Program-made: the position numbers and the translations under genes
Notes under the pieces: generated by a model
What the model was told of the DNA's origin: nothing
The model's input: only the letters and a program-made list of their open reading frames with translations
Database searches by the model: none
Assembly (NCBI GenBank): GCA_958296345.1
Contig: CATQIJ010000007.1
Span: 60,608-124,607 of the forward strand
DNA from: an uncultured Rhizobiaceae bacterium
Lineage (GTDB): Bacteria; Pseudomonadota; Alphaproteobacteria; Rhizobiales; Rhizobiaceae
DNA length: 64,000 nucleotides
Direction: 5' to 3'
Shown: positions 35,153 to 61,752 of the stretch, one piece after another
How the letters are laid out: every line of letters starts with the position of its first letter
How positions within the stretch are numbered: the stretch's first letter is position 1

Positions 35153-36335
35153 TTAATGAGATAGTTCTTTTAAGCCTTGATCTAAGCCAGACAATGTCAT
35201 GGGGAACATACGGCCCGTAAAAGCTGATTAATCATCTGTGTTGATTGTGTGTATTTCCAACACGCTCTTCAACTGGATTGAGCCAAATTGCATTGTTCCA
35301 TTTATCTAGAAACACGCCTTAACCCAAATCTCTCCAGATTCTTGATTCCAATGTTCACAGAGCCGCCCGGATAAACCACTTCATAAGGGCTCATGGCAGC
35401 ATCGCCTACAAAGATAATTTTATAATCAGAACCATAAGTATGCAAAACATCCCACGTTGACATGCGCTCGTTATGACGTCGCTTATTATTTTTCCAAACA
35501 CCTTCATAAAGGCAATTGTGAAAGTAAAAATATTCAAGGTTTTTAAGTTCAATTCGGGCTGCAGAAAAGAGCTCTTCAACTAACTTAATGTGATCATCCA
35601 TAGAGCCACCAATATCGAGGAACAATAATACCTTTACCGCATTTCTACGTTCTGGTCTTGTCTTCACATCAAGATAACCGTTTTCCAGCAGTGGCTTTGA
35701 TTGTGTTGTTTAAATCTAGCTCTTCGGATGCGCCGTCACGTACCCAGCGACGTAAACGCTTTAAGGCAACCTTAATATTACGCGTTCCAAGTTCGACAGA
35801 ATCATCAAGGTTTTAAATTCACGTTTATCCCAAACTTTAACCGCGCGGCGATGCCTGCTTTCATGTTGGCCAATTCTAACGCCTTCAGGGTTATAGCCAT
35901 AAGCACCAAAGGGGGATGTGCCAGCTGTTCCAATCATTTTAGAACCGCCTTGATGGCGTTTGTGTTGTTTTTCCAAGCGCGTCTTCAGGGTTTCATAAGC
36001 TTTTCCCATCCACCAAGAGATTCAATTTCTTTCATCTCTTCTTTGGAAAGGTGTTTCTCAGCCATCTTGCGTAGCCATTCTTCAGGTAGGTCAACTTGGT
36101 CTATACCTTCTGTTCCACCAACCCGTTCAACACCTTTAAAGCTTTCAGAAAAAACAACATCAAAGCGGTCTAAGTTACGCTCATCTTTAACAAGAGCTGC
36201 ACGTGCAAGGTAATAGAAACCTTCAACATCGTAAGCCACGAGGTTTTTTTCCATCGCTTCTAGCAAGGTTAAAAATTCTCGCAACGTGACGGGAATTTTA
36301 GCTTCTTTGAGTTTTAAAAAGAACGGTAAAAACAT
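35153..36335 (-). pseudogene. VWA (CoxE-like) domain protein, multiply frameshifted
   Basis: Remnant of a ~390-residue von Willebrand factor A protein that partners MoxR ATPases. Family segments occur in order but in changing frames: FLPFFLKLKEAKIPVTLREF, HQGGSKMIGTAGTSPFGAYG, AVKVWDKREF, then LGTRNIKVALKRLRRW, then VLLFLDIGGSMDD (MIDAS-like), IIFVGDAAMSPYEV, EHWNQESGEIWV, AIWLNP and finally GRMFPMTLSGLDQGLKEL ending at 35153. At least six shifts are needed (near 36000, 35815, 35690, 35355, 35310 and 35230). The longest surviving frames are 116, 82 and 121 residues. No functional product is expected. Its normal partner, a MoxR ATPase gene, survives at 39237. Confidence 0.85.
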
Positions 36336-36362
36336 GTTGTTTGTTTAGCTTAAGATTGCGCT

Positions 36363-37191
36363 TTAAGAAAGAGGCACACCTTCAATAGTAATACGGTGCA
36401 TTAAGCGGCGATGGCCTGCATAATCATTAATAGCCATATGTTGAAGCGCGCGATTATCCCAGATAGCCATGGTTCCTGGTTCCCATCTTATCCGGCACGT
36501 GAAATCAGCTCGAGAGCAATGGGTATAAAGTTGGTTGAGTAGCGGTTGCGATTCTTCCTTAGTCCAGCCGTCAATATGTGTCGTGAAATCTACATTTACA
36601 TAAAGACATTTTTTTCCCCGTTACTGGATGCGTTAATACGATAGGGTGAAGCGCGTCTTGCTTAGCTGCCTCTTCATTAACAAGGCGCCCATCTTTATGA
36701 GCTTCTTCATCGCTATGATCGGCCCCAAACGCATGACGCGATGAGTGCCACGCATGTAAACCTTCAAGCGTTTTCTTCATGCCATCTGAGAGTGCCATAT
36801 AGGCTGCATGTTGAGAAGAAAAAGCAGTATCACCACCTACTGGTGGTGTTTCAACGGCGTAGAGCATAGAGCACATGGCGGGCGCTGTGTCGTAGTATTG
36901 ATCTGTATGCCAAGTTTTGCCAACGGCAGAGATTTGATCAGGCTCTTTTACAACAGACGCAATTTCAGGATAGCCTTCAACAGGTTTAAAGAACCGATTG
37001 ACATTGATTTCACCCCACTGTTTAGCAAAAGCAATATGTTCTTCAGGGGTTAGGTTTAATCCACGAATGGCAACGACGGAATGATCTGTAAGCGCTTGTT
37101 TAATAGCGTTAACGTCATTTTCATTCGTAACATCAGCACCATATATATCAGCCCCAACTGATGGTGTAATAGGCCTTACTTCAATTCCCAT
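36363..37191 (-). pseudogene. TauD/TfdA-family 2-oxoglutarate dioxygenase, frameshifted in an A7 run
   Basis: About 275 residues if read through. Iron ligands are KTWHTDQYYD (HxD) and, in the shifted frame, ALQHMAIND (distal His), with the 2-oxoglutarate Arg in RRLMHRITI. After HPVTGKK the current frame runs to a stop at 36571 (MSLCKCRFHDTY); removing one base from the run of seven A (T7 at 36609-36615 on the plus strand) restores CLYVNVDFTTHIDGW through to a stop at 36363. The truncated product lacks the distal His and should be inactive. The family oxidises taurine, alkyl sulfates or other small acids. RBS GGAG precedes ATG 37191/37194. Confidence 0.82.
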
Positions 37192-37245
37192 CATAATCTC
37201 CACTTTTCAAAAGTGTAGCGGAAAACGAAGTAATTTCAATCAAGA

Positions 37246-40363: not shown

Positions 40364-40870
40364 CTATTTTTGCAATACTTGAAGGCGCTTTGTAGCACCA
40401 CTATTGCCTAACTCTTCAGCTTTTTTATATAACTTGATTGCTTCCGCTTTACTTTTTTGAACACCTCTTCCTGCTTCGTACATTTTCCCAAGTAAATAAT
40501 AAGAGCCACTGTTATTTATCTTCATTCCTTTACGATGCCATTTTATTGCAGTTTGATAATTTTGCTCAACGCCCGTTCCATTTTCATAGGCACGTGCAAT
40601 TGAACCAAAGGCATTCACGTATTCAGCTTCAGCACTTTTTTCAAACCAACATGCAGCTTGTGTAGGCCTCTTCCTGAAAAATACTGAATTCTTTATAGCA
40701 AAATTCCACATTTGTTCTCCAGTGAAATTAGTCTTTTGACTAAGATCACAGTTTGGAGGTGGCGCTGCAGATTTAAACTTGAAAAGTAGATAAACAATAA
40801 CAACAAGGCATACTAAAAGTAGTCCTAGGAACTTTATAATCTTTTCAGATTGCTTATGGGTTCTAGTCAT
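40364..40870 (-). CDS. Membrane-anchored Sel1-repeat protein
   Basis: A 168-residue protein with one N-terminal transmembrane helix (about 12-32) and two to three Sel1-like (TPR-type) repeats: AACWFEKSAEAEYVNAFGSI, AYENGTGVEQNYQTAIKWHR and YLLGKMYEAGRGVQKSKAEA. Sel1 repeats bind other proteins; no partner is evident. The topology places the repeats in the periplasm. Its start overlaps the end of the DUF3726 gene by 8 bases, so it is probably the last gene of the catabolic operon that starts with the aldehyde dehydrogenase at 45568. Confidence 0.75.
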   Translation of the reverse strand: MTRTHKQSEKIIKFLGLLLVCLVVIVYLLFKFKSAAPPPNCDLSQKTNFTGEQMWNFAIKNSVFFRKRPTQAACWFEKSAEAEYVNAFGSIARAYENGTGVEQNYQTAIKWHRKGMKINNSGSYYLLGKMYEAGRGVQKSKAEAIKLYKKAEELGNSGATKRLQVLQK

Positions 40871-41447
40871 TGTCGTTAAGACCAGCCCCAGCCCCAGCTA
40901 ATCTTGATGCCTCTGTTGAGGGCGCATAAGTTTTATGTGCAAGAGTATTTAAAATTGCCACATGTGGCTCAGCTTCTTCAGAGACGCGAGTTTTGTTTGA
41001 TAATATATCTGAAGTGTTTTCAGATAATATAGCTTTTAAGACATGCTGCTGCGTATCTAGTGCGTTTAAGTTTTTAGCAGTAACGCCATTTTTTTGAATG
41101 GTTATACTATTATTATCCCAGCTTAAAATAAGACTCTCGTCGCCTAAAACATTAGCGATAAAGGGGGCAAGTAATAGTGGTTCGTGGACAGTTTTTCCCT
41201 GAAGTTCATTCCAGTCATTTGTATCTGATATCAAACAACCCAGCTTTAACGGGCAATGTTCATATTCAAAACCATTTGGCTTCTGCACTTTATATAAATA
41301 CTGAGCCAAGCTTTTTGCACCTTGTAATCCATGTGCTTCTAGCCAGTTAACAACAAATCCTGCTTCTTCAGCAATGCCCCAGTCCATTCCAGCACCGCGA
41401 GCTGCTTTTACGCTAAGTGCGCGTATTTCACCTAAAGACCAGCTCAT
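40863..41447 (-). CDS. DUF3726 family protein
   Basis: A 194-residue soluble protein. The N-terminus SWSLGEIRALSVKAARGAGMDWGIAEEAG matches DUF3726, a family of unknown function I know mainly from marine alphaproteobacteria. The C-terminal ~40 residues are low-complexity. It overlaps the upstream gene of unknown function by 4 bases (ATGA type), so the two are translated together and probably act together. Confidence 0.7.
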   Translation of the reverse strand: MSWSLGEIRALSVKAARGAGMDWGIAEEAGFVVNWLEAHGLQGAKSLAQYLYKVQKPNGFEYEHCPLKLGCLISDTNDWNELQGKTVHEPLLLAPFIANVLGDESLILSWDNNSITIQKNGVTAKNLNALDTQQHVLKAILSENTSDILSNKTRVSEEAEPHVAILNTLAHKTYAPSTEASRLAGAGAGLNDND

Positions 41448-43144
41448 TTTGAATCCTGGGGCGGGTAGGCTAAGTCATCAGGATCTAGTGCTGAAATCTC
41501 ATCAGGAAAAGGAGCGCCTTGATACATCGTAATTCGTACCCACCGATCTGATCGGGGATCAAATTTAGTTGCGCCGAAGAAAGACAACTTGCAGCGCAGT
41601 AAGTCTATAGGAAGCATTGTAGAACAAATCGTATTATCGCAGATTTCTGCATATTGTTTGTTAGAAACCAATTGTACTCGACGAACAATATGGCGGTGCT
41701 CTGGATGCTTCATCAAAAACGTAGCAACTGTTTCAGTATCAGCCCAGTTTTGAAGATCTTCAATTAGTCTGACTGTGTCGCGCGCAGGTGAAAGAGGTTG
41801 TTCGTAAGGCTCAACAGGCTCCTCATGGCGTTCACCAAGACGAGGCTCAAGTTTTTCTTCTGATACATACCAAACGCGAGCATTGGCAGTTGTTTCGTCA
41901 AAATTAATTTGGTCAGTCCACTCATATAAATTCTTTAGAATAGATTTAATCGTTGAGATTGGCATGGTGCCATTTATTCGAAAACTATCACTCTCATCAG
42001 CGCACATTGTTTCAGCCATATGGTCAACAAGTTCACCATATGGCTCTAAGATAAGAGACGCAATTTGTTCTTGTCCTTCAAAACTAAGATTGTTCTCAGT
42101 CCATTCTATCAATGAATTCCAAGGATAGTCTTGATTAAGAATATCTGTCTTTAAAACTGAATTGATTTTTTCAAAATCTTTGCAAAGGCCTTCAATTTTA
42201 CTTTTTTGAAGTTCATGACCAGTATACCAGCTTGCAGCATTAATCTCAGAGCGTTCAACAAGGTTTTTAAATTTAGCAATTTTTTGCGGTTCTGCTGTTT
42301 CCAGCGAACGAACAATCCCAATGGCAGTTTCTCGCCCATTAATCCAGGCATGAATAAGTGCAGGATGATTAATTAGGAATGGTGCCATTCCCAGACCCGT
42401 AGAATTCCCAACGCCAAACTGGCGGCGAACATCTGGGTCTAGCGCAACAGCACTTTCTCTATTCATTACTTTTGCCATATGTTCAACCATATCAATTGCA
42501 AAAGTTCTAATGAGCCACACAGATAATAATTCGGGCTGAAAAGAACCAGAGAACTCTGGTCGATCGGCCCACTTTTGACGGTCGCAGGAGCCAAATTTAG
42601 CAGATCCATACACCGCAGTAGTGCGCATTAAATAACCCACTTTTTCGATCTCTGAAATATCAGGTTGCTGCCCATTTGAAAGGCATTCACTGACATACTT
42701 AAACAGACGTACAGAACGATTAGCTCTTGAAAGAGAAATTTCCTTTTCAGAAACACGACCTGCTTCTTGGAGAGGGACGTTTTTGGAAAGCCGTTCGATA
42801 TCTGCTTTAGTTGGTTCACCATCAAAAAGCGTAAAGGTAGCATCCCAAGCTTCTGCAATTACGCGGTCGGATCGAAGTTCTGCTGGTAGGTCATGGGCAA
42901 AGGCAATAAGCGTATAAGTGCGTTCCGGTCCTTTAGCGCTGTATGTCGCAACACCAACACCATTATCATCGACATCAAAGATCGGGCGATCAAACTGCCA
43001 ATTTTCTTTCTTCAATCGCCGTAATAAAACACGCATGAAACTCAAGCGAGATTGATGAAACGAACCCATTCGCTTTAATCGCATAACCTGCGAAGCAGGG
43101 CGCATTTTTAAGCTTTGAGATAGGTGCTTATCTGGCTCTCTCAT
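41444..43144 (-). CDS. Conserved protein of unknown function (566 aa)
   Basis: A 566-residue cytoplasmic protein with no signal peptide or membrane helix. I do not recognise a domain of known function. Visible features: N-terminal basic segment (RLKRMGSFHQSRLSFMRVLLRRLKK), a region rich in Trp and His (QPELLSVWLIRTFAIDMVEHM), and a C-terminal segment ending in YPPQDSK. The ATG at 43144 overlaps the stop of the dipeptidase gene as ATGA, and its own stop overlaps DUF3726, so it lies within one operon. It may be an unrecognised enzyme or chaperone of the cluster. Confidence 0.7.
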   Translation of the reverse strand: MREPDKHLSQSLKMRPASQVMRLKRMGSFHQSRLSFMRVLLRRLKKENWQFDRPIFDVDDNGVGVATYSAKGPERTYTLIAFAHDLPAELRSDRVIAEAWDATFTLFDGEPTKADIERLSKNVPLQEAGRVSEKEISLSRANRSVRLFKYVSECLSNGQQPDISEIEKVGYLMRTTAVYGSAKFGSCDRQKWADRPEFSGSFQPELLSVWLIRTFAIDMVEHMAKVMNRESAVALDPDVRRQFGVGNSTGLGMAPFLINHPALIHAWINGRETAIGIVRSLETAEPQKIAKFKNLVERSEINAASWYTGHELQKSKIEGLCKDFEKINSVLKTDILNQDYPWNSLIEWTENNLSFEGQEQIASLILEPYGELVDHMAETMCADESDSFRINGTMPISTIKSILKNLYEWTDQINFDETTANARVWYVSEEKLEPRLGERHEEPVEPYEQPLSPARDTVRLIEDLQNWADTETVATFLMKHPEHRHIVRRVQLVSNKQYAEICDNTICSTMLPIDLLRCKLSFFGATKFDPRSDRWVRITMYQGAPFPDEISALDPDDLAYPPQDSK

Positions 43145-44117
43145 TTTACAGGTCCAAAATTCTCATCATAAAACCGCAACCAGTTTTCACCCATAATACC
43201 AGCTGTTTCTGTTTCAGAAAACCCAATATCTCTTAGACCCTGTTCTATATTGCCAAAATCGCGGTTGTCTTTAAACCATTCAGGCATTGGTGGGAAACCA
43301 GCGTCACTTGCTGAGCCTCACCGTAATCTATTTCTTTAGACCAGCGCCCAACGCGCATCCATTCAACAATACTATCAGGTTGATCTTGGCAAAGATCTGT
43401 ACCTATACCAAGATTTTCTGCACCCATTAGATCTGCTGTCTTCGCTATCATTTCGCAAAAACTTTGGAGCGTACAGTCAGATTTTCCTTTAAGATGGTGT
43501 GGGTAAAGCGAAAAGCCTAACATGCCACCAGATTGACCAAGTGCTTTTAAAACGTCATCAGATTTGTTGCGAAGTGCTGCGTGCCAGAAGTATGGGTTTG
43601 CATGAGTAATGGCAATTGGTCGCTCAGAAACTTCGATTGAATCAAGTGTAGAGCGTTCTGCAGAGTGGCTCATGTCAATAACAAGACCAACACGGTTCAT
43701 TTCTTTAATAACCTGCTTACCCATACGAGTAATCCCAGTATCTTCGGCCTCATAACAGCCAGTCGCGAGTAGGGACTGATTGTTATAAGTAAGCTGCATA
43801 AAGCGAGCGCCCAACATGTGGCAAATTTCTACAAGTCCAATATCATCTTCTATAGGCGATGGGTTTTGAAAGCCAAAGAAAATCGCCGTCCGGTTAGTTT
43901 CACGCGCAAGACGAACATCATCCCCCGTTTTGCCATGAAAGATAAGTTCAGGAAAACGCTCGAACCATAGGTTCCATTTTTCGACATTGGCAACCGTTTC
44001 ACGGAAGTTTTCATGATAAGTTATCGTGACATGAACTGCATCAACACTACCTTCGCGCATTTGACGAAAGGTTTTTTCTGACCAATTGGCATATTGTAGG
44101 TTATCTATTCTATGCAT
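43141..44117 (-). pseudogene. M19 membrane-dipeptidase family protein, frameshifted near the C-terminus
   Basis: About 325 residues if read through. Renal-dipeptidase-type residues are present in VIDMSHSAERS, ITHANPYFWH and GIGTDLCQDQ, but the usual N-terminal metal motif HxD is absent: the protein begins IDNLQYANWSEK. After GRWSKEIDYGE the frame shifts (near 43314-43318, one G lost), giving a false C-terminus ending at 43245. The expected GFPPMPEWFKDNRDFGNI through NWLRFYDENFGPVK lies in the next frame and ends at 43143, overlapping the downstream ATG. The shift may be recent or a read error. Starts at TAATG on the aldehyde dehydrogenase stop. Confidence 0.8.
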
Positions 44118-45568
44118 TATTGAGGGTCTCCAGCTGATATGTAAGCAGTTTTTACTGTCGTATAAAATTCTGCGGCAGCTTTACCTTGTTCTCTTGAGCC
44201 ATATGAGCTGTCGCCACGTCCACCAAATGGTACATGATAATCCGTACCAGCTGTAGGTAAATTCACTGTAACGACACCACTTTTCGCATTTCGCCTAAAA
44301 TGAGTAGCACGTGCAAGGCTTTTTGTGGCGATGCCGCAAGTTAGGCCAAAATTGGTGTCATTTACAGTTGCAAGAGCTTCTTCATAAGAATCTACTTTGA
44401 TAATAGAGGTAAGTGGAGCGAACATCTCTTCGCGGTTAATCCGCATCTCGTTTCGCGTATTTAGAAATACACCTGGTGACATGTAATACCCTTCAGTGGA
44501 CATCTCTAGTTGCTCACCACCACAAGCAAGCTCTGCTCCTTCTTCTTGGCCAAGCTTCACGTAAGAAAGATTGCTTTTTAGTTGTGAATTACTGACGACA
44601 GGGCCTATTTGCGTGCCTTCATCTAATGCATGACCTACCTTCATGGATTTTGTGCTGGTAATTAATTTTTCAACAAATTCGTCATGAATACTCTTATGTA
44701 CTATCAAACGGGAAGAGGCCGTACATTTTTGCCCTGTGCCTCCAAAAGCACCACCAACAGCTATGCTAACTGCAAGGTCAATGTCGCAATCGTCCATAAT
44801 AGCCAGAGCATTTTTTGAGCCCATCTCCATTTGTATTTTTGTAAAATTTTGAATTGCCATTGTGGCAATTTGTTTGCCAGTTTCAACTGATCCAGTAAAA
44901 GAAATGGCGTCAAGGTCAGGATTAGATATAAGCTGTTCGCCAATCGTAGCACCTGAGCCCATTACAAGACTAAATAGTCCTTTAGGAATATCTTGTCGAT
45001 CAATAATTTCAGCTAAAGCAACTGCCGATGCTGGTGTAAGGTTTGCCGGTTTCCAGATGACCGCATTACCGTAACAAAGGGCCGGGGCAATTTTCCATGC
45101 TGCAGTTGCCGTTGGAAAATTCCATGGAGATATAACGCCAACAATGCCAAGCGGTTCACGGTGCACATCAATTTCAACACCTGCTCTTACAGAATCTGCG
45201 CTTTCCCCAAGTTGACGAAGCGTTTCAGCGGCATAATAGGTGAAGAATTGCCCAGCTCTGTATACTTCGCCACGTCCCTCTGCAAACGGCTTTCCTTCCT
45301 CACGGCTAAGTAGAGTTCCTAATTCATCACAGCGGTTGATTAATTCATTTCCGATGGCCATTAGAGCTGAAGATTTGCGCTCAAGACCATACTCAGCCCA
45401 CACGATTTGCGCCTTGCGCGCATGAGCTAACGTTTCAATAATTTGTTCATTACTCGCTTGAGCAAAATTACCAATTAGATCGTTTAAATCTGAGGGATTT
45501 CTATTCTCAACTTCGCTTTGACCATCTACCCATTGGCCTGCGATTAAATTAAGATTTAATTTTGACAT
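44117..45568 (-). CDS. NAD(P)-dependent aldehyde dehydrogenase
   Basis: A 483-residue aldehyde dehydrogenase. The cofactor motif [12 protein letters not shown], the Glu in [10 protein letters not shown] and the catalytic Cys in [12 protein letters not shown] are intact, as is the N-terminal [18 protein letters not shown]. It is closest in pattern to ketoglutaric-semialdehyde/succinic-semialdehyde dehydrogenases. Start is ATG 45568 with GGAG 7 bases upstream. First gene of the operon ALDH - dipeptidase - unknown - DUF3726 - Sel1, divergent from a LysR gene. Confidence 0.9.
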
Positions 45569-45633
45569 TTTCTGCTCCAGTTTGAGTTTGCTAAGAAAAT
45601 ATAGCCTCATCGTATAATTTCAGTCAAAATCAA

Positions 45634-45646
45634 ATAATTGAATTAT
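45634..45646. promoter_or_regulatory. Palindrome between ALDH and LysR genes
   Basis: ATAATT-G-AATTAT is a perfect 6-1-6 inverted repeat placed between the divergent ALDH and LysR starts, where a LysR regulator would bind to control both. It is AT-rich so chance is not excluded. It covers a TTG (45638), supporting the later LysR start. Confidence 0.35.
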
Positions 45647-45664
45647 ATTTCAGGAAAATTGAAA

Positions 45665-46552
45665 TTGAGTATAAAAATTGAAATGCTTCGTTATTTTTGT
45701 GTAGTTGCAGAAAAAGGCAATCTACTTACTGCTGCTGAAAGTCTTGGCAGAACACCATCGGCTATTTCCATGATGTTAAAACAACTAGAAGGCAATTTGG
45801 GCGGAAAGTTATTTGAAAAGGATCGTAAAAACAAACTTACAAGCCTTGGAAAATACGTGCTACAACAGGCTCAAAATGAAATATCGCATTTTGATGCAAC
45901 CATAAATGCAGTTGAGAATTACGCAAAAAATCCATCGGGAATATTGCGGATAGCATCTGTCCCATCTGCCACATTTGGGTTTCTTGCATCTGTTATTGAG
46001 GAATACTCACAAGAATTTCCAAAGATTAAAATTGAAATATGGGATATGGATTCAGCGAGTATTGTAAGAGCACTCTCAAACGGCTTTATAAAGTTAGGGA
46101 TAGCCTCTTGGCCTGGGGATGTTAAAAACCTTACTAGTCAGCCTCTGTTTCAGGATGACTTTGGTTTGGTCTCGCATGTAGATCATGAAATTGTATCAAC
46201 GAAACGCTCTTTAACGTTTTCGGATTTAAAAGCAGAGAAGTTAATTACCAATGATCTAAGTAATTTAATTGAACATGAAGAATTAAAAAGACTATCCAAA
46301 GATTAGTCACTTTCTGCAAAAAATACTTTTTCTTTAATTTCTCTAATGAACTCTCATTATTGGTATTCTATTCTCCCAAGTAATGTCATTAATATCAGTC
46401 CAAAAACATTAGTTTTTCAAAGAATTAAAGGGCTATCTTCGCAAAGAACAGTTTCAGCCTTGTACAAGAATGATGATAGAGACAAAAAACATTTATTAGA
46501 TTTTATGGATATGGTTTCTCAAAGTGTTGCTGAATTAAATAAAGAGCAATGA
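45665..46552 (+). pseudogene. LysR-family regulator interrupted by an in-frame amber codon
   Basis: The N-terminal helix-turn-helix is intact (MLRYFCVVAEKGNLLTAAES, SAISMMLKQLEGNLGGKLFEK), followed by the LysR substrate-binding domain (GILRIASVPSATFGF). A TAG at 46304-46306 stops translation after LKRLSKD, about 214 residues in. The same frame then continues as SLSAKNTFSLISLMNSHY and SILPSNVINISPKTLVFQRI to 46552, matching the usual LysR C-terminus. So a single nonsense mutation removes the last ~80 residues. The start is taken as TTG 45665 with AGGA upstream; ATG 45683 is an alternative that would cut the helix. Confidence 0.82.
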
Positions 46553-46656
46553 ATGATAAACTTGCGAAAGCAATTTCATAAAATTATGTAAAACGTTCAG
46601 ATAATAATATCGACAGCATCAATTTTGCGATGGTTTTCCCAATAAAATTGTTAGGA

Positions 46657-47001
46657 TTACCTAACCATTCCTTTTTCTTTAAGTTCAGCCAAATACTCTG
46701 CCCATCGCTCTTCTTTATTTTGTCCTAGATCCTGAAAATAGACCCATGAAAAAATACCCGTGTTGTGCATGTCGTCAAAGGTAATTCGAACAGCGTAATT
46801 GCCTACAGGTTCCATTTGCATGATTTGAATGTTTTGTTTTCCGCCAATGGTTTTACGTTGTTCGGGCGAATGGCCTTGCACTTCTGCGGATGGCGAAAGT
46901 ACGCGCAACATTTCTGCTGTTAGTTCATAAACCTCAGTGTCACCAAAGGCAATTTCCAAGGATTTTTTATCTTTGCGAACTGTTAGTTTGGTCGGTTGCA
47001 T
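46657..47001 (-). CDS. DUF971 (gamma-butyrobetaine hydroxylase N-terminal-like) protein
   Basis: A 114-residue protein of the DUF971 family, resembling the small N-terminal domain of gamma-butyrobetaine dioxygenase. The family pattern includes the LRVLSPSAEVQGHSPEQR and GNYAVRITFDDMHNTGIFSW segments. It is often found as a stand-alone gene whose role is unknown; iron-sulfur or metal-related functions have been suggested for relatives. Divergent from the desaturase-like gene, 90 bases between. A short hairpin GTTAGG/CCTAAC overlaps its stop and could end transcription. Confidence 0.82.
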   Translation of the reverse strand: MQPTKLTVRKDKKSLEIAFGDTEVYELTAEMLRVLSPSAEVQGHSPEQRKTIGGKQNIQIMQMEPVGNYAVRITFDDMHNTGIFSWVYFQDLGQNKEERWAEYLAELKEKGMVR

Positions 47002-47091
47002 GTGTTTTGTATCATCCTGTGTGAATTGTCATCATTTGCGGTGTGTAAAAGACGTATTGATTTTGACTGGAAATTCGAATTATCTCAATTC

Positions 47092-47970
47092 ATGACTAAT
47101 ACTTTTTCTGATCATAAACAACTCATAGCAAGTCTTACAGATCAACAGCGTGCAGAGCTGACTCGAAAGTCAGATGTATCGGGGATAGTACATTTCATCA
47201 GCCATCTTTTCGCAATTTCTTTAACAAGCGCTTGGATTATCAATGGTTGGGTTGGTTGGCAGGTAATTACTATTTTACACGGTGTGATGTTAGTGTTTTT
47301 GTTCACGCTCTTGCATGAAACGGTTCATTTTACGGTTTTTGAAACGTCGCGACTAAATACAGTCGCGGGTTGGGTCTGTAGTCTTATTATTCTCTTACCA
47401 CCCAATTGGTTTCGCTATTTCCATTTAGCGCATCACCGCCATACCCATAATCCAGAAAAAGACCCAGAGCTTGAGGGTAAAAAACCAGAAACAGTTTTGG
47501 AATTCATTTGGGCTATAAGTGGCATTCCTGTTTGGTTGTTCCATATCAATACGATCATAATGAATGCTATCGCTAGTCCTGTATATGCCTATGTTCCCAA
47601 GCCGGGATATAAAAAAATAAGAGCAGAAGCTTGGGTGATGATTGCTATTTATATAATTTTATTTGGTGCATCGATTTACTATGCGTCCAATACGCTATTA
47701 TGGGGCTGGATCATTCCTGGTTTAGTAGGCCAACCGTTTTTGCGGCTTTATCTTATGGCTGAGCATGGCCGATGCCCAAATGTCGCAAATATGTTGGAAA
47801 ATACACGCACGACATATACGACAAGTTTTGTGCGGTGGCTTGCCTGGAATATGCCTTACCACACAGAACATCATGCCTATCCATCGGTTCCATTTCATAA
47901 ATTGCCAGAATTTCATGAGGTCGCAAAACTGTATTTGCATGTGACAGAAAATGGCTACTCAATTTCATAA
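47092..47970 (+). CDS. Membrane di-iron fatty-acid-desaturase-like protein
   Basis: A 292-residue membrane protein with four or more helices and the three histidine boxes of the family: LLHETVHF, HLAHHRHTHN and MPYHTEHHAY. These ligate a di-iron centre that activates oxygen. The family includes acyl desaturases but also hydroxylases of small amines and alkanes. Here the gene starts a plus-strand set with two FAD-oxidoreductases, so a role in oxidising the cluster's substrate is possible. Start is ATG 47092; longer in-frame starts run into the DUF971 promoter region. Confidence 0.85.
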   Translation: MTNTFSDHKQLIASLTDQQRAELTRKSDVSGIVHFISHLFAISLTSAWIINGWVGWQVITILHGVMLVFLFTLLHETVHFTVFETSRLNTVAGWVCSLIILLPPNWFRYFHLAHHRHTHNPEKDPELEGKKPETVLEFIWAISGIPVWLFHINTIIMNAIASPVYAYVPKPGYKKIRAEAWVMIAIYIILFGASIYYASNTLLWGWIIPGLVGQPFLRLYLMAEHGRCPNVANMLENTRTTYTTSFVRWLAWNMPYHTEHHAYPSVPFHKLPEFHEVAKLYLHVTENGYSIS

Positions 47971-48009
47971 AAAGACTATCCAGATATTATCTGGTGCAAG
48001 GGAGCAACC

Positions 48010-49317
48010 ATGAACAAACAATATGATGCAATAATTATTGGTGCAGGAGTGATTGGTGCTTGCGTTGCCTTTGAACTTTCAAAAAAGGGCTACAAAACAC
48101 TGAGTATAGATAAAGGGCCAGAAGCAGGTTACGGCTCTACATCAGGCTCATGCGCAATCATTCGTACTTACTACTCTGCATATGAAACTTGCGCACTTGC
48201 TTACGAAGGATGGTTCTACTGGAAAGATTGGGCGGGATATTTAGGCACTGATGATGAGCAAGGTTTGATCACTTATAACGATACAGGGTGTCTTGTAATT
48301 AAGACGCCACACAATAAGTTTCTTGAGGAAGCCTGCAAAACAATGGACCGTATTGGTTGTTCATATGAGCATGTTGAGGCTGAAGATATCCCATCAAAAT
48401 TACCTGGCGCGGACATTCGTAAATTCGAGCCTGCAAAACTAATATCTGACGATAGTTTTGGCGAGGCAACGGGCGGTGAAGTTCCTGGAGCTGTTTTATT
48501 CCATGCTGGTGGTTATGTATCAGACCCTAAACTATCGGCTCATAACGCGCAGCGTGCTGCAGAGGCACAAGGTGCGAAGTTCATATTCAAATCTGAAATC
48601 ACCGAAATTAGACAAGCTGATGGTCGAGTTGTAGGTGTAACGCTTGCGGACGGTACACAGATTGACGCAAGAATTGTTGTTAATGTAGGTGGGCCCCACT
48701 CTTCAATTCTTAACGAAATGGCTGGCGTTAAAGCAAGCATGAAAATGTCTACGCGTGCCCTTCGTCATGAAGTTAGCCACGTTAAAGCACCCGTTGATAT
48801 TGATTATGGTAATGGTGGGTTTGTTTATTCAGACAGTGATATTTCAACTTATGCACGTTCAGATATAGGTGGGAATATTCTGCTTGGTTCAGAAGATCCA
48901 GAATGCGATACGCAAGAGTGGATCGAAGACCCTGATAACTACAATACTGAGTTTACAGATCAAAATAAAACACTAGCCATGCGTTTTGCTCAGCGGTTGC
49001 CCTCGCTAGGTATTCCCGAGCAGGCTAAAGGAGTTGTAGCACTTTATGATGTTACAGAAGACTGGATTCCAATTTACGATAAATCTGACTTGCCAGGTTT
49101 TTACATGGCTTGTGGTTCGTCAGGCAATCAGTTCAAGAATGCACCTGTTGCTGGCAAAATGATGACTGCAATTATTGAAGCCTGTGAAAATGGTCACGAC
49201 CATGATGTTGAGCCTGTGATGTTTGAACTCGAAAACATCGGCCATACAATTTCACTTGGAACTTTTTCTCGCAACCGTGAGATCAATCCAAATTCTAGTT
49301 TTTCAGTGATTGGCTAA
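48010..49317 (+). CDS. FAD-dependent oxidoreductase (DAO / sarcosine oxidase beta-like)
   Basis: A 435-residue flavoprotein of the D-amino-acid-oxidase fold. The N-terminal Rossmann motif is IIIGAGVIGACVAFELSKKG with Lys/Asp at the adenosine end (SIDKGP); GSTSGSCAIIR is the region that in relatives carries the covalent flavin Cys or His. C-terminal GFYMACGSSGNQFKNAP closes the active site. Such enzymes oxidise N-methyl amino acids or amines; substrate unknown. Starts 40 bases after the desaturase-like gene, RBS AAGGGAGC. Confidence 0.85.
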   Translation: MNKQYDAIIIGAGVIGACVAFELSKKGYKTLSIDKGPEAGYGSTSGSCAIIRTYYSAYETCALAYEGWFYWKDWAGYLGTDDEQGLITYNDTGCLVIKTPHNKFLEEACKTMDRIGCSYEHVEAEDIPSKLPGADIRKFEPAKLISDDSFGEATGGEVPGAVLFHAGGYVSDPKLSAHNAQRAAEAQGAKFIFKSEITEIRQADGRVVGVTLADGTQIDARIVVNVGGPHSSILNEMAGVKASMKMSTRALRHEVSHVKAPVDIDYGNGGFVYSDSDISTYARSDIGGNILLGSEDPECDTQEWIEDPDNYNTEFTDQNKTLAMRFAQRLPSLGIPEQAKGVVALYDVTEDWIPIYDKSDLPGFYMACGSSGNQFKNAPVAGKMMTAIIEACENGHDHDVEPVMFELENIGHTISLGTFSRNREINPNSSFSVIG

Positions 49318-49358
49318 TAAGAAGCGTCAAGAGGCTTTAGTCTGATAGGGAGAAAGAA

Positions 49359-51908
49359 ATGAAAGATTCATATCGTGCAGTTGTCATTGGCGGCGGTGTT
49401 GTTGGGTGTTCGGTGCTTTATCATCTTGCAAAGGCAGGCTGGACGGATGTGCTTTTAATTGAACGATCAGAACTTACATCAGGTTCTTCTTGGCACGCAG
49501 CTGGCGGGTTTCATACGTTAAATGGCGATCCAAATGTAGCAAAACTTCAAGCCTATACGGTTTCGCTTTATGATGAATTAGAAAAGATCTCTGGTCAGTC
49601 TTGCGGGCTTCATCTGACAGGTGGCGTTATGATGGCTGACTCTGAAGAACGGATGGACTTCCTGCGCCTGACTCAAGCACAAGGACGATGCTTGGGAATG
49701 GAAACAGAAATCATCACGCCATCAGAAGCCAAAGCAATGTTTCCCTTGATGGATGAAATAAATTTTGTTGGTGCGCTTTGGGATCCTGTTGAAGGTCACT
49801 TAGACCCATCAGGCACAACACACGCCTATGCAAAAGCTGCAAAAACTCTAGGCGCTGATATTGAATTACGAAACCGCGTCGAAGACTTAACTCAAGATGT
49901 GGATGGTACTTGGAATGTGGTTACTGAAAAAGGCACAATCCGCACAGACCATGTTGTTAATGCTGGTGGGCTATGGGCGCGCGAAGTAGGGCGTATGGTG
50001 GGTCTCGAACTCCCCGTTCTTGCCATGGAGCACATGTATCTTCTAACAGAAGAAATGCCAGAAGTGCTAGAGTTCAATCAAGATACAGGGCGTGAACTTG
50101 TCGGTGTTATAGATTTTAAGGGAGAGATTTATACGCGCCAAGAGCGTACAGGCCTTCTACTAGGTACTTATGAAAAAGCCTGTAAACCATGGTCGCCAAC
50201 TAAGACGCCTTGGGATTTTGGTCATGAACTTTTACAGCCAGATCTTGAACGTATTTCACCATCCTTAGAAATCGGATTTAAGCATTTCCCTGCTTTTGAA
50301 AAAGCTGGCATTAAACAAACCATCAATGGACCTTTTACCTTCGCACCGGATGGAAATCCTTTGGTTGGTCCTGTCGATGGACTGACAAACTTCTGGTGTG
50401 CTTGTGCTGTTATGGCTGGCTTTTCTCAAGGTGGCGGTGTTGGCCTCGCACTTTCTAATTGGATGGTACATGGTGACCCAGGGTATGACATTTGGGGGAT
50501 GGATGTAACGCGTTTTGGTGAGTGGGCAACGCCTCGTTACACCAATGCAAAAGTGCGCGAAAACTATTCAAAGCGTTTCTCAATTCGTTTTCCAAATGAA
50601 GAATTACCTGCTGCAAGGCCGCAACAAACAACGCCGCTATATGATGTGATGAAAGATAAAAATCATGCAGTGATGGGCGATACTTGGGGGTTGGAGACAC
50701 CCCTTTGGTTCGCGCCATCTCAAGAAGAAGCGCATGATGTATTATCGTTCCATCGCTCGAATGATTTTGAACACATTGGTAATGAAGTCTGCGCAGTACG
50801 TGAATCTGTTGGCATCACGGAAATTTCAAACTTTGCAAAATACCAGGTGAGCGGAGAGGGCGCAGAAGCTTGGCTTTCACAACTCATGACAAATACAATG
50901 CCAAAAGAAGGGCGTATTACTCTAACCCCAATGTTAAATGAAAATGGCAAGCTGATAGGTGACTTCACAATAGGGAAGATTTCTGAGGATGCATTTATGA
51001 TGTGGGGTTCGCTGGGTGCTTCACGGTATCATATGCGGTGGTTCATAGATCATTTGCCGCAAGATGGTTCAGTAGAAGTACATCGATTTGATATGGACTT
51101 AATGGGCTTGTCGATAGCTGGTCCAAATGCGCGCAAGGTGCTTGAAAAATTATGTGATGATGATGTTTCTAATGAAGCGTTCCGTTTTATGGATATTCGA
51201 GAAATGGATGTGAATGGCGCACCTTGTATTGTCAATCGCATTACTTATTCCGGTGATCTTGGGTATGAAATTTGGATGGAGCCAATCTATCAACGCAAGG
51301 TATATGATGGTCTGAAAGGTGCAGGTGCAGAATTCAAGATTGTTGACTTTGGTATGCGTGCGCTTTTATCCATGCGTCTTGAGAAAAACTTTCCTACTTG
51401 GTTTGCAGAAATGCGTCCGATTTATGGGCCTTATGAAGCATCAATGGATCGTTTTATTAAGCTTTCAAAGAATGATTTCATAGGACGAGAGCCAGCAGCA
51501 AAAGAACATGCTGATGGGCCAAAATTACGCCGTGTATCGTTTGTGATTGATGCAGATGATGCAGATGTAATGGGTGATGAGCCGATATGGGCTAAAGTCT
51601 GCGATAAGGATTACGGAACGGTTGAAGCACCCCATGGTTATGGTGCCGTACGATTTGATGCATCAGGAAAAGAAGTTGCAAAAACAGTGCCTCATATTGG
51701 CGGAGAATGGCGCGTGATCGGCTGGGTAACATCTGGCGGCTACGGACATTATGTTAAGGCATCCTTGGCGCAAGGGTATATCCCTGCAGAGCTTGCAGAG
51801 CGCGATGAGGAAAAGTTATTTGAAATTGAAATTCTTGGTATTCGCCGAAAAGCTCGTATTAATATCGAGCCATTATTTGATCCAACTGGTGAGAAGATGC
51901 GAAGCTAG
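49359..51908 (+). CDS. Dimethylglycine/sarcosine dehydrogenase-like fused DAO-GcvT protein
   Basis: An 849-residue two-part enzyme. Residues 1-390 form the flavin oxidoreductase (Rossmann VVIGGGVVGCSVLYHLAKAG; SSWHAAGG with His46 in the place of the covalent-FAD His of dimethylglycine dehydrogenase), 390-440 the FAO_M linker, and 450-840 the GCV_T folate domain and its C-terminal barrel (LMGLSIAGPNARKVLEKL, NRITYSGDLGYEIW, VTSGGYGHYVKASLAQGYI). Members demethylate dimethylglycine, sarcosine or related N-methyl compounds and pass the methyl carbon to tetrahydrofolate. Forty-one bases separate it from the DAO gene. Exact substrate unproven. Confidence 0.9.
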   Translation: MKDSYRAVVIGGGVVGCSVLYHLAKAGWTDVLLIERSELTSGSSWHAAGGFHTLNGDPNVAKLQAYTVSLYDELEKISGQSCGLHLTGGVMMADSEERMDFLRLTQAQGRCLGMETEIITPSEAKAMFPLMDEINFVGALWDPVEGHLDPSGTTHAYAKAAKTLGADIELRNRVEDLTQDVDGTWNVVTEKGTIRTDHVVNAGGLWAREVGRMVGLELPVLAMEHMYLLTEEMPEVLEFNQDTGRELVGVIDFKGEIYTRQERTGLLLGTYEKACKPWSPTKTPWDFGHELLQPDLERISPSLEIGFKHFPAFEKAGIKQTINGPFTFAPDGNPLVGPVDGLTNFWCACAVMAGFSQGGGVGLALSNWMVHGDPGYDIWGMDVTRFGEWATPRYTNAKVRENYSKRFSIRFPNEELPAARPQQTTPLYDVMKDKNHAVMGDTWGLETPLWFAPSQEEAHDVLSFHRSNDFEHIGNEVCAVRESVGITEISNFAKYQVSGEGAEAWLSQLMTNTMPKEGRITLTPMLNENGKLIGDFTIGKISEDAFMMWGSLGASRYHMRWFIDHLPQDGSVEVHRFDMDLMGLSIAGPNARKVLEKLCDDDVSNEAFRFMDIREMDVNGAPCIVNRITYSGDLGYEIWMEPIYQRKVYDGLKGAGAEFKIVDFGMRALLSMRLEKNFPTWFAEMRPIYGPYEASMDRFIKLSKNDFIGREPAAKEHADGPKLRRVSFVIDADDADVMGDEPIWAKVCDKDYGTVEAPHGYGAVRFDASGKEVAKTVPHIGGEWRVIGWVTSGGYGHYVKASLAQGYIPAELAERDEEKLFEIEILGIRRKARINIEPLFDPTGEKMRS

Positions 51909-51912
51909 TCTG

Positions 51913-51951
51913 TTTCAAGGGCTGCAACTTTATAGCAATCAGCCCTTGAAA
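51913..51951. terminator. Perfect 12-bp stem-loop at convergent gene ends
   Basis: TTTCAAGGGCTG (51913-51924) and CAGCCCTTGAAA (51940-51951) pair exactly with a 15-base loop. It lies just past the stop of the dimethylglycine-dehydrogenase-like gene and covers the 3' end of the opposite small ORF. A/T runs inside the stem arms could serve termination in both directions. Confidence 0.55.
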
Positions 51952-52061
51952 AACCTAACAAGTGTATAGGCTATGATGCATCCAAAACAGATAAGAATCC
52001 ACGGCATCCAGACCTGAGGTCCATGTCCGCCAGTAACCCAATAAATTGTGTCATTTAGCAT
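51939..52061 (-). CDS. Small single-helix membrane protein (40 aa)
   Basis: A 40-residue frame preceded by GGAGG (52072-52068) with a 6-base spacer to ATG, an unusually strong Shine-Dalgarno. The peptide starts MLNDTIYWVTGGHGPQ, then one hydrophobic helix rich in Ile, Cys and Trp (VWMPWILICFGCIIAYTLV), and ends RFFKG. This is the shape of a small bitopic membrane protein. I know no family. Its opposite orientation to, and 28-base distance from, the dimethylglycine-dehydrogenase-like gene leave its relation to the cluster open. Confidence 0.55.
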   Translation of the reverse strand: MLNDTIYWVTGGHGPQVWMPWILICFGCIIAYTLVRFFKG

Positions 52062-60440: not shown

Positions 60441-60536
60441 TCCAGCACAGTAAAGGCTTGAATTAAAATAGTTTACTACTCTTCATTTAGAGGAATGCAA
60501 ATTTGAGGCCATTTGTTGAAAAAATCGCATATTGTA

Positions 60537-60548
60537 ATTGTATACAAT
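60537..60548. promoter_or_regulatory. Candidate GntR (FCD-type) operator
   Basis: ATTGTATACAAT is a perfect 12-base palindrome, 30 bases ahead of the GntR start. It fits the general FCD/FadR-subfamily half-site pattern (TnGTnnnACnA). Placed where the regulator could repress its own gene and the following genes. Also lies upstream of the divergent sugar transferase gene. Confidence 0.5.
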
Positions 60549-60578
60549 ATGTATTATTTAATAAACATTGGAGGCGAG

Positions 60579-61274
60579 ATGATCTTAAACAAGAAGCAGG
60601 CGTGTCAAGAAGCACTAGTACATCGTATTTTATCGCTCGATATTGACCCAGGTTCAACATTGGATGAAACCTTGCTTTCAGTGGAGTACGGATTATCACG
60701 AACGCCTTTACGTGAGGTTTTCCAAAAACTAGCTGGTGATGGCTATTTGATGCTGAATGAAAATCGAGGCACAAAAGTGTCTTCGATGGACTTAGCCAGT
60801 ATGAGAGATTTTTTCCAATCTGCACCCATGATATACGCAGCAGTTGCGCGTTTAGCCGCAGAAAATGGCACAAACGAACAATTGGATGATTTGAAAAATA
60901 CTCAGACCTTTTTCCGCCGTGCTGGAGAGGCAAGTGAAACGCAAGACATGGCGATGCATAATCATCGTTTTCATAAAATTATCGGCGAAATGGCGGGTAA
61001 CCCATACCTATCTCCGAGTTTAAATCGCCTTTTAATTGATCACACTCGAATGAGTCAGATGTTTTATAAACCAATTAATTCCAAAGAGCGTTTGTTGGTT
61101 TGGGAGGCGTGTGATCAGCATGATGGTATGATTGATGCAATTGAAAAAAGAGATTGTGGAGCAGTTGTAAATTTAACCATTGAACATTGGGAATTATCCC
61201 GAGACAGAATTGAAAAATTTGTAAGACCTGACCCGCTTGATGTGGATATAGGTATGCAGCAATTAGGGGAGTGA
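60579..61274 (+). CDS. GntR-family (FCD) transcriptional regulator
   Basis: A 231-residue regulator. N-terminal winged helix: SVEYGLSRTPLREVFQKLAGDGYL, with the NRGTKVSSMD wing; C-terminal FCD ligand domain (HNRFHKIIGEMAGNPYLSPSL, and AIEKRDCGAVVNLTIEH, which hold metal-binding His/Asp in the family). Likely ligand is a carboxylic acid. Start ATG 60579 with GGAGG four bases upstream. It precedes a DapA-family gene and an aldehyde dehydrogenase, suggesting control of their pathway. Confidence 0.87.
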   Translation: MILNKKQACQEALVHRILSLDIDPGSTLDETLLSVEYGLSRTPLREVFQKLAGDGYLMLNENRGTKVSSMDLASMRDFFQSAPMIYAAVARLAAENGTNEQLDDLKNTQTFFRRAGEASETQDMAMHNHRFHKIIGEMAGNPYLSPSLNRLLIDHTRMSQMFYKPINSKERLLVWEACDQHDGMIDAIEKRDCGAVVNLTIEHWELSRDRIEKFVRPDPLDVDIGMQQLGE

Positions 61275-61277
61275 ATT

Positions 61278-61667
61278 ATGAAAATTAGATTATTTATTTC
61301 ACTTTTAATGTTGTTACTGCCAACTCATGCATTTGCGACAGGAGAGGTAGTTTGCAAAGCGATTGATGGTCGTAGTGGTGAAGTATATTTATCTGTTGGG
61401 CGTCTTCCTGTGTTGAATATTTTATCTGCCGAAGTCAATGCCTTTGGAAAAACATGGTCGACGGCACAAGATGCAGAAAACCAAATTGTTGTCGGGCAAG
61501 CATTTGAAGATAAGTCGCAGTTACTTGTTGATTTCACTAACAGTAATATTGAAGAAATTATCATCTCTCTACGTACCTCAAGAATGAGTACTCCCAAAGA
61601 ATACGGTGAGGCGGGTGTTCTAAGAATTGGCGAAGCTGTTTACCCAGTCTTATGTGAAGGTGGATGA
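61278..61667 (+). CDS. Hypothetical secreted protein
   Basis: A 129-residue protein with a signal peptide (KIRLFISLLMLLLPTHAFA, about residues 2-20). The mature part is small and beta-rich with two cysteines (VVCKAIDG near the N-terminus and PVLCEGG at the C-terminus) likely to form a disulfide. No family recognised. It starts three bases after the GntR stop, so it is co-transcribed, but its relation to the catabolic genes is unclear. Confidence 0.7.
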   Translation: MKIRLFISLLMLLLPTHAFATGEVVCKAIDGRSGEVYLSVGRLPVLNILSAEVNAFGKTWSTAQDAENQIVVGQAFEDKSQLLVDFTNSNIEEIIISLRTSRMSTPKEYGEAGVLRIGEAVYPVLCEGG

Positions 61668-61677
61668 GGTCTGCAAA

Positions 61678-61752
61678 ATGAATCATGAATTAGTCAAACG
61701 AGAGCATCAGATATTGTTACTGACGATCTGTGTGAGCATTGGAGAAGAGTAA
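61678..61752 (+). other. 24-codon mini-ORF overlapping the DapA-family start
   Basis: ATG at 61678 opens a 24-residue frame whose TAA (61750-61752) overlaps the next ATG as TAATG. It contains the downstream gene's Shine-Dalgarno (GGAGAAGAG). It may be chance or a coupled leader peptide. Confidence 0.3.

What the first reader, a model, noticed from the sequence alone, without database searches (positions are those of the whole stretch)
41444..52061. Uncharacterised catabolic cluster built around a dimethylglycine-dehydrogenase-like enzyme
Two divergent gene sets share one neighbourhood: ALDH, M19-type protein, a 566-residue unknown and DUF3726 on one strand, and a membrane di-iron oxygenase-like protein, DAO flavoprotein and fused DAO-GcvT enzyme on the other, with a LysR gene between. 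Flavin demethylases plus a folate-linked GcvT domain imply removal of N-methyl groups, and a membrane di-iron enzyme could open or hydroxylate the starting compound. No named pathway I know has this exact set; candidate substrates include betaine-like or N-methylated heterocyclic marine osmolytes. Coupled start/stop overlaps show the unknown proteins belong to it.
Basis: partly seen in the sequence, partly recalled or inferred. Interest (0 to 1): 0.72.

Follow-up and report, generated by a model that had tools for sequence, protein, structure and literature searches.

The report
Likely homarine-breakdown operon, plus separate demethylases
Four genes packed end to end here, most of them kept together in many other bacteria, likely let the cell break open homarine, a nitrogen compound made by marine algae, and would feed it into glutamate metabolism; the demethylase genes next door are probably a separate set that is rarely found beside them elsewhere.

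Summary
The named genes are there, but they look like two modules. The leftward set (ALDH, M19-like hydrolase, a 566-aa protein here called U566, DUF3726) with LysR is a widespread operon: 39 of 289 alphaproteobacterial genomes, the own one included, carry U566. Within 9 kb of U566 in 80 named loci lie M19 in 76, DUF3726 in 80, ALDH in 55, LysR in 46, BCCT betaine transporter in 27, and Ldh_2 imine-reductase-like gene in 26. Some copies adjoin a glycine betaine ABC transporter or a soxBDAG/mgd-like operon. This fits betaine uptake, ring opening, aldehyde oxidation, amide hydrolysis, imine reduction and Mgd demethylation; homarine is the best candidate. I think it is homABCDER (Ferrer-Gonzalez et al. 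2026), but that paper was not held, so this is inference. FADS lies near U566 in 5 of 80 and 0 of 38 loci, DAO in 3 and 0, DMGDH in 2 and 3. DAO and DMGDH often pair elsewhere (9 of 20). Possibly new: the DUF3726 model resembles a shortened Ldh_2 dehydrogenase, and U566 is the proposed ring opener.

The parts
40863..41447 (-). DUF3726 protein (194 aa); structure model resembles a shortened Ldh_2 dehydrogenase
41444..43144 (-). U566: 566-aa protein of unknown family, core of the operon, proposed ring-opening enzyme
43141..44117 (-). M19-like amidohydrolase, split by a frame change near 43,315; proposed deformylase/amide hydrolase
   Evidence: PF01244 213 bits; 88% then 82% identity to L033 M19 in two frames; closest PDB chain for the L033 relative is 2i5g, 182.6 bits
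44117..45610 (-). Aldehyde dehydrogenase
   Evidence: PF00171 504 bits; best NCBIfam alpha-ketoglutaric semialdehyde DH at 487.3 bits, under its 770 cut-off
45638..46306 (+). LysR regulator, divergent; homology continues past an in-frame stop to about 46,471
   Evidence: PF00126/PF03466; tblastn; LysR near U566 in 46 of 80 named and 5 of 38 class loci
46657..47001 (-). DUF971 / GBBH-like_N small protein, probably not part of the operon
   Evidence: PF06155 91.9 bits; found in 3 of 80 named loci: L071, L072, L079
47092..47970 (+). Membrane fatty-acid-desaturase-like protein, likely independent
   Evidence: PF00487 123.8 bits; no DAO435, DMGDH or U566 homologue in loci of 20 of its 22 best relatives
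48010..49317 (+). DAO flavoprotein (435 aa), part of a recurring DAO-DMGDH pair
   Evidence: PF01266 167 bits; a DMGDH homologue nearby in 9 of 20 fetched relatives, 6 of them at 42% identity or more
49359..51908 (+). Dimethylglycine-dehydrogenase-like DAO-GcvT enzyme (849 aa)
   Evidence: PF01266, PF16350, PF01571, PF08669; 561.5 bits to DMGDH 4p9s

Best explanation
The leftward genes at 40,863-45,610 with the LysR gene form a conserved operon that likely breaks down homarine (N-methylpyridinium-2-carboxylate) to N-methylglutamate. Proposed route: a betaine transporter (BCCT or ProXWV type, next to the operon in other genomes) would import homarine. U566, probably working with DUF3726, would open the ring between C5 and C6, as the trigonelline enzymes TgnAB do (recalled), leaving an N-formyl-N-methyl enamine with an aldehyde. 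ALDH would oxidise the aldehyde, and the M19-like hydrolase would remove the formyl group. An Ldh_2 imine reductase (DpkA-like; in the operon in many genomes, here only a copy elsewhere in the genome, 44% identical to the TM1040 one) would reduce the resulting N-methyl imine to N-methylglutamate. The heterotetrameric Mgd enzyme would then give glutamate and a folate-bound one-carbon unit. Shown here: operon conservation, gene families, linkage to betaine transporters and to tmaR-mgd-like genes in some genomes, and co-occurrence. Inferred: substrate, order of steps, each enzyme's reaction. The rightward DAO+DMGDH genes are read as a separate N-demethylation module.
For: Gene order LysR-ALDH-M19-(BCCT)-U566-DUF3726-Ldh in named genomes (counts). 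BCCT and OpuAC/permease families confirmed in sample loci, and Aminobacter carries a glycine betaine ABC transporter directly downstream. soxBDAG plus an AraC/DJ-1 regulator lies directly upstream of the operon in Ruegeria TM1040, and the same with a 69%-identical regulator in A. crassostreae. In R. pomeroyi an AraC-type tmaR adjoins mgdABCD, and Mgd is reported to act in homarine catabolism (PMC13390433, passages). SoxB of this type lies 7-12 kb from U566 in 3 class genomes, G065, G161 and G207, and the own genome has a similar set (SoxB 76%, regulator only 28% identical). Co-occurrence with U566: Ldh (E<=1e-50) 30 of 39 vs 26 of 250; SoxB at 58% identity or more 28 of 39 vs 37 of 250. The Ldh profile matches delta1-piperideine-2-carboxylate reductase 1wtj best (244.5 vs 187.7 bits), an enzyme type that makes N-methyl-L-amino acids (PMC6110843, passages).
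Against: No direct test of substrate. The homarine paper was not held, so equating the operon with homABCDER rests on recall and gene count. The window copy has no Ldh or transporter gene beside it, and its M19 and LysR are broken. In its nearest kin (L071, L072, L079) no ALDH or LysR was found in the locus, and in the wider sample ALDH is near U566 in only 12 of 38 and LysR in 5 of 38 loci, some cut by contig ends. SoxB is near U566 in 1 of 80 named and 2 of 38 class loci (9-kb limit). The own genome also has a luciferase-type monooxygenase cluster beside its mgd-like genes that could be the homarine or trigonelline route. That monooxygenase and DAO435 co-occur with U566 too (11 of 39 vs 8 of 250; 10 of 39 vs 12 of 250), so part of the co-occurrence is lifestyle or kinship. 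U566 shows no recognised oxygenase domain. M19 has lost residues aligned with known metal ligands (ligands recalled). Distant U566 relatives in Sinorhizobium and Natrinema suggest more than one substrate.
Confidence: 0.62

Rival explanations
1. The operon degrades another N-methylated betaine or pyridinium (trigonelline, a proline betaine or a related compound) by the same chemistry.
For: Betaine transporters and the imine reductase do not fix the substrate. Relatives, mostly at 28-46% identity, occur on plasmids of soil and plant-associated bacteria.
Against: Linkage with mgd-type genes in some genomes and the reported role of Mgd in homarine catabolism. An imine reductase ending in an alpha-N-methyl amino acid fits a 2-carboxylate (homarine) better than a 3-carboxylate (trigonelline) - inference.
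Confidence: 0.2
2. One reading: both gene sets form one pathway, with the desaturase-like protein acting first and the DAO and DMGDH-like enzymes removing N-methyl groups.
For: Both sets lie together in L071 and L079, and FADS plus core in L072. FADS also lies within 9 kb of U566 in L120 and L133, DAO435 in L144, and DMGDH homologues in 3 of 38 class loci. DAO435 is enriched in U566 genomes (10 of 39 vs 12 of 250). A folate-linked demethylase is the kind of enzyme needed after N-methylglutamate.
Against: FADS is near U566 in 5 of 80 and 0 of 38 loci, DAO435 in 3 and 0. In loci of 20 of the 22 best FADS relatives no DAO435, DMGDH or U566 homologue was found. The own genome already has an mgd-like set.
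Confidence: 0.1
3. The homarine pathway of this genome is the luciferase-type cluster beside the mgd-like genes, and the U566 operon serves another, unknown substrate.
For: Flavin reductase, luciferase-like monooxygenase, ALDH and alpha/beta hydrolase beside an AraC regulator and soxBDAG in G000:C10, like the recalled TgnABCD trigonelline set.
Against: It is rarer: 19 of 289 genomes at E<=1e-60 (U566 39 of 289 at the looser E<=0.001). In the lists, the latter cut, no other copy lies within 15 kb of a soxB (nearest about 25 kb, G079), whereas U566 operons do so in several lineages. No imine reductase is among its six genes seen.
Confidence: 0.12

Closest known systems
Homarine operon homABCDER (Ferrer-Gonzalez et al. 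2026, Nat Microbiol 11:1531; seen only as a reference in PMC13390433, content recalled)
   Same: Recalled as five genes plus a regulator, in Rhodobacterales, SAR116 and SAR11, ending in N-methylglutamate and Mgd. Here: five enzyme-like genes plus LysR in the fullest copies, in Rhodobacterales and SAR116 records, beside mgd-type genes in some.
   Different: Gene families of the published operon could not be compared. The window copy lacks the Ldh gene in place and has broken M19 and LysR genes.
Trigonelline pathway TgnABCD of Acinetobacter baylyi (recalled)
   Same: ALDH plus an amide-cleaving hydrolase plus LysR for an N-methylpyridinium carboxylate; C5-C6 cleavage is the model used here.
   Different: No luciferase-type oxygenase or flavin reductase in this operon; U566 and DUF3726 instead, and an imine reductase in many copies.
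Dimethylglycine dehydrogenase (PDB 4p9s, 5l46)
   Same: The 849-aa protein has the DAO-FAO_M-GCV_T-GCV_T_C layout and 561.5 bits to 4p9s.
   Different: Substrate not known; belongs to the rightward module, not to the U566 operon.
Ldh_2 dehydrogenases such as DpkA (PDB 1wtj) and sulfolactate dehydrogenase
   Same: The operon Ldh is a full member. The DUF3726 model aligns with the fold over 141-169 residues.
   Different: DUF3726 is about 140-150 residues shorter, and the Ldh_2 Pfam model did not report it at E 0.001.

Membership tests
Homarine operon homABCDER | Same five protein families plus regulator as published | not testable with these tools
   Paper not held; the listings of searches showed no open description of the genes
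Homarine operon homABCDER | Five enzyme genes with an adjacent regulator in one operon (count recalled) | tested here: met
   LysR-ALDH-M19-U566-DUF3726-Ldh in TM1040, Aminobacter, A. crassostreae; the window copy lacks Ldh
Homarine operon homABCDER | Link to N-methylglutamate dehydrogenase | tested here: met
   soxBDAG with a regulator gene adjacent in TM1040 and A. crassostreae; met in few loci overall; that these are Mgd and not sarcosine oxidase rests on synteny with R. pomeroyi
Homarine operon homABCDER | Presence in Rhodobacterales and SAR116 (distribution recalled) | tested here: met
Homarine operon homABCDER | Homarine growth or induction | not testable with these tools
   needs experiment
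Trigonelline TgnABCD type | Two-component flavin oxygenase (luciferase-like + flavin reductase) in the cluster | tested here: not met
   none among the nine window genes; such a set is elsewhere in the genome
Dimethylglycine dehydrogenase (849-aa protein) | DAO-FAO_M-GCV_T-GCV_T_C architecture | tested here: met
M19 membrane dipeptidase, canonical binuclear zinc enzyme | Full set of metal ligands | tested here: not met
   in L033 M19 the position aligned with Glu of 1itq GVEGGH is Gln, and the N-terminus reads like that of 2i5g without HxD; two His kept (ligand identities recalled)
Ldh_2 fold (DUF3726) | Fold similarity across the domain | tested here: met
Ldh_2 fold (DUF3726) | Sequence relationship | tested here: inconclusive
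   hhalign E 0.006 but probability 6%; a Natrinema gene downstream of a U566 relative gives 36.2 bits to Ldh_2, cut-off 38.8

The most novel reading that the evidence does not exclude
U566 with DUF3726 is a new type of pyridinium-ring-opening enzyme: a large protein of unlisted family working with a dwarf relative of Ldh_2 dehydrogenases that has shed about 150 residues, opening an aromatic N-methylpyridinium ring without any recognisable flavin, haem, Rieske or di-iron oxygenase gene in its operon.
Probability: 0.35. Interest if true: 0.8.

Novelty: new member of a known kind. Interest (0 to 1): 0.52.

Why it matters
Homarine is a phytoplankton osmolyte, and R. pomeroyi draws it down with a mean lifetime of 2 h or less (PMC12817926, passages). 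If the reading holds, every gene of the route has a proposed job and the two unannotated proteins become the ring-opening step, which can be tested directly. It also moves DUF3726 from unknown function to a candidate shortened dehydrogenase fold, and it warns against reading the DMGDH gene next door as the core.

Tried and rejected
Rejected as less likely: one pathway started by the desaturase. Rejected: canonical dipeptidase for M19. Considered: M19 as part of a dimethylglycine operon as in Pseudomonas (PA5396 near dgcAB, recalled only).

Led nowhere: papers on DUF3726 (0), on the gene set (0 with 3 of 4 terms), on homABCDER (0), on trigonelline cleavage (1, unrelated). The 120 listed U566 hits show no R. 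pomeroyi name, so its presence there is unknown.

Limits of the counts: the 80 named loci are the best 80 of 585, so they favour near relatives. The 38 class loci come from 36 of the 38 other genomes with a match; G064 and G088 (fragment hits) were not fetched. Loci cut by contig ends count as misses. For FADS 20 of the 22 best other matches were fetched (G279:C60 and G263 left out). For DAO435 20 of the 23 other matches were fetched (second copies in G117 and G222, and G116, left out); of the 9 with a DMGDH homologue, 3 show only 31-33% identity. The SoxB 58% limit was set by hand after seeing the list, the genome lists there were typed, one search's match list is cut, and kinship was not corrected for. 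Identity limits were also set by hand.
Full report
What is there. The window is G000:C7:60608-124607 of a 2.94-Mb, 83%-complete genome. Nine genes between 40.86 and 51.91 kb were scanned; eight have Pfam families and U566 has none. The leftward four are tightly coupled: TAATG at ALDH/M19 and ATGA at M19/U566 and U566/DUF3726. M19 is split by a frame change near 43,315 and LysR carries an in-frame stop. A TauD-like gene at 36.2-37.2 kb, outside the finding, is also split between frames, so assembly errors are as likely as decay.

Conservation of the left set. U566 has no Pfam or NCBIfam match and only a chance-level PDB sequence match, yet 39 of 289 alphaproteobacterial genomes, the own one included, carry a relative. 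Where sources name it they say hypothetical or uncharacterized protein, apart from one UniRef title with EH_Signature. Within 9 kb of U566 in these 80 loci: M19 76, DUF3726 80, ALDH 55, LysR 46, BCCT 27, Ldh_2 26, ProX 3, SoxB 1. In 38 loci drawn from the 289 genomes: M19 33, DUF3726 29, Ldh_2 15, ALDH 12, LysR 5, BCCT 5, ProX 5, SoxB 2. The firm core is thus M19-U566-DUF3726; ALDH, LysR, Ldh_2 and transporters are common but not constant. In the nearest kin L071, L072 and L079 no ALDH or LysR was found in the locus.

Links that point to the substrate. Full versions read: TM1040, soxBDAG - AraC/DJ-1 regulator - LysR - ALDH - M19 - BCCT - U566 - DUF3726 - Ldh; Aliiroseovarius crassostreae, the same genes with BCCT at the end; Aminobacter, LysR - ALDH - M19 - U566 - DUF3726 - Ldh - glycine betaine ABC transporter. 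P. inhibens has RidA - LysR - ALDH - M19 - U566 - DUF3726. Among the 80 named loci SoxB/A genes of this type appear in L107 and L131; in the class sample SoxB is 7-12 kb from U566 in G065, G161 and G207. PMC13390433 (passages) reports tmaR, an AraC-type gene, beside mgdABCD in R. pomeroyi and cites the finding that Mgd acts in homarine catabolism. The window genome has an AraC/DJ-1 - soxBDAG set at C10, 76% identical in SoxB to the TM1040 copy. Ldh and SoxB occur in 30 and 28 of 39 U566 genomes against 26 and 37 of 250 others. A luciferase-type gene (11 of 39 against 8 of 250) and DAO435 (10 of 39 against 12 of 250) are also enriched, so part of this is lifestyle or kinship.

Mechanism (inferred). 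Homarine is a betaine with the carboxylate on C2. Opening C5-C6, as recalled for trigonelline, would give an N-formyl-N-methyl enamine and an aldehyde at C5. ALDH, M19 and Ldh then have natural jobs, and the end product is N-methylglutamate, the Mgd substrate. The Ldh profile scores 244.5 bits to delta1-piperideine-2-carboxylate reductase 1wtj, next best 187.7. Such DpkA enzymes make N-methyl-L-amino acids from 2-oxo acids and methylamine through imine reduction (PMC6110843, passages). U566 with DUF3726 is left for the ring opening. No cofactor site was recognised.

The right set. The 849-aa protein is DMGDH-like (561.5 bits to 4p9s). DAO435 is related at a distance to monomeric sarcosine oxidase (45 bits). 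DAO435 relatives occur in 22 of 289 genomes at E<=1e-60, and 9 of 20 fetched loci carry a DMGDH homologue nearby, 6 at 42% identity or more and 3 at 31-33%. In 20 loci of FADS relatives no DAO435, DMGDH or U566 homologue was found. Both sets lie together in Rhizobiaceae-group MAGs L071 and L079, and FADS plus core in L072; FADS also lies within 9 kb in L120 and L133, and DAO435 in L144. So the joint arrangement is shared by some relatives but is not general. DMGDH homologues near U566 in L047, L051 and L060 leave room for a link between such enzymes and N-methylglutamate, at low probability.

Known or new. I judge the operon to be the recently reported homarine operon, which makes this a new member of a known kind. 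That judgement uses recall for the published gene count and distribution, because the paper was not held. The reading of U566 and DUF3726 is what could be new.

Noticed in passing
L248 (G000:C10:150500-169500): Flavin reductase, ALDH, luciferase-like monooxygenase, AA_synth, alpha/beta hydrolase and TPP enzyme beside an AraC/DJ-1 regulator and soxBDAG: a trigonelline-type cluster next to mgd-like genes.
   Followed up: partly
window 60513-64000: A regulator that looks GntR-like, a dihydrodipicolinate-synthase-like gene and an ALDH running to the contig end (contig length); looks like a hydroxyproline-type set, judged by eye from the translations.
   Followed up: no
window 36200-37203: TauD-like dioxygenase (by eye) split between two frames.
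   Followed up: no
L232:9245-10147 (G000:C13): Ldh_2 gene with an internal TGA in the profile match, beside an FA_hydroxylase and, by eye, aminotransferase-like and kinase-like genes; 44% identical to the TM1040 operon Ldh.
   Followed up: partly
L233:7716-16854 (S. meliloti pSymB): Distant U566 (28.5%), a 251-aa protein without Pfam match, M19, an SBP_bac_8 ABC transporter and a class-III aminotransferase in a row: a divergent version with probably another substrate.
   Followed up: partly
L235 (Natrinema versiforme plasmid): U566 relative (31%) between an ALDH and a BCCT transporter in a haloarchaeon, suggesting transfer between domains.
   Followed up: partly
L033:7931-8914, relative of window M19 43141-44117: The M19 protein shares with 2i5g the loss of canonical metal-ligand positions (ligands recalled).
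   Followed up: partly
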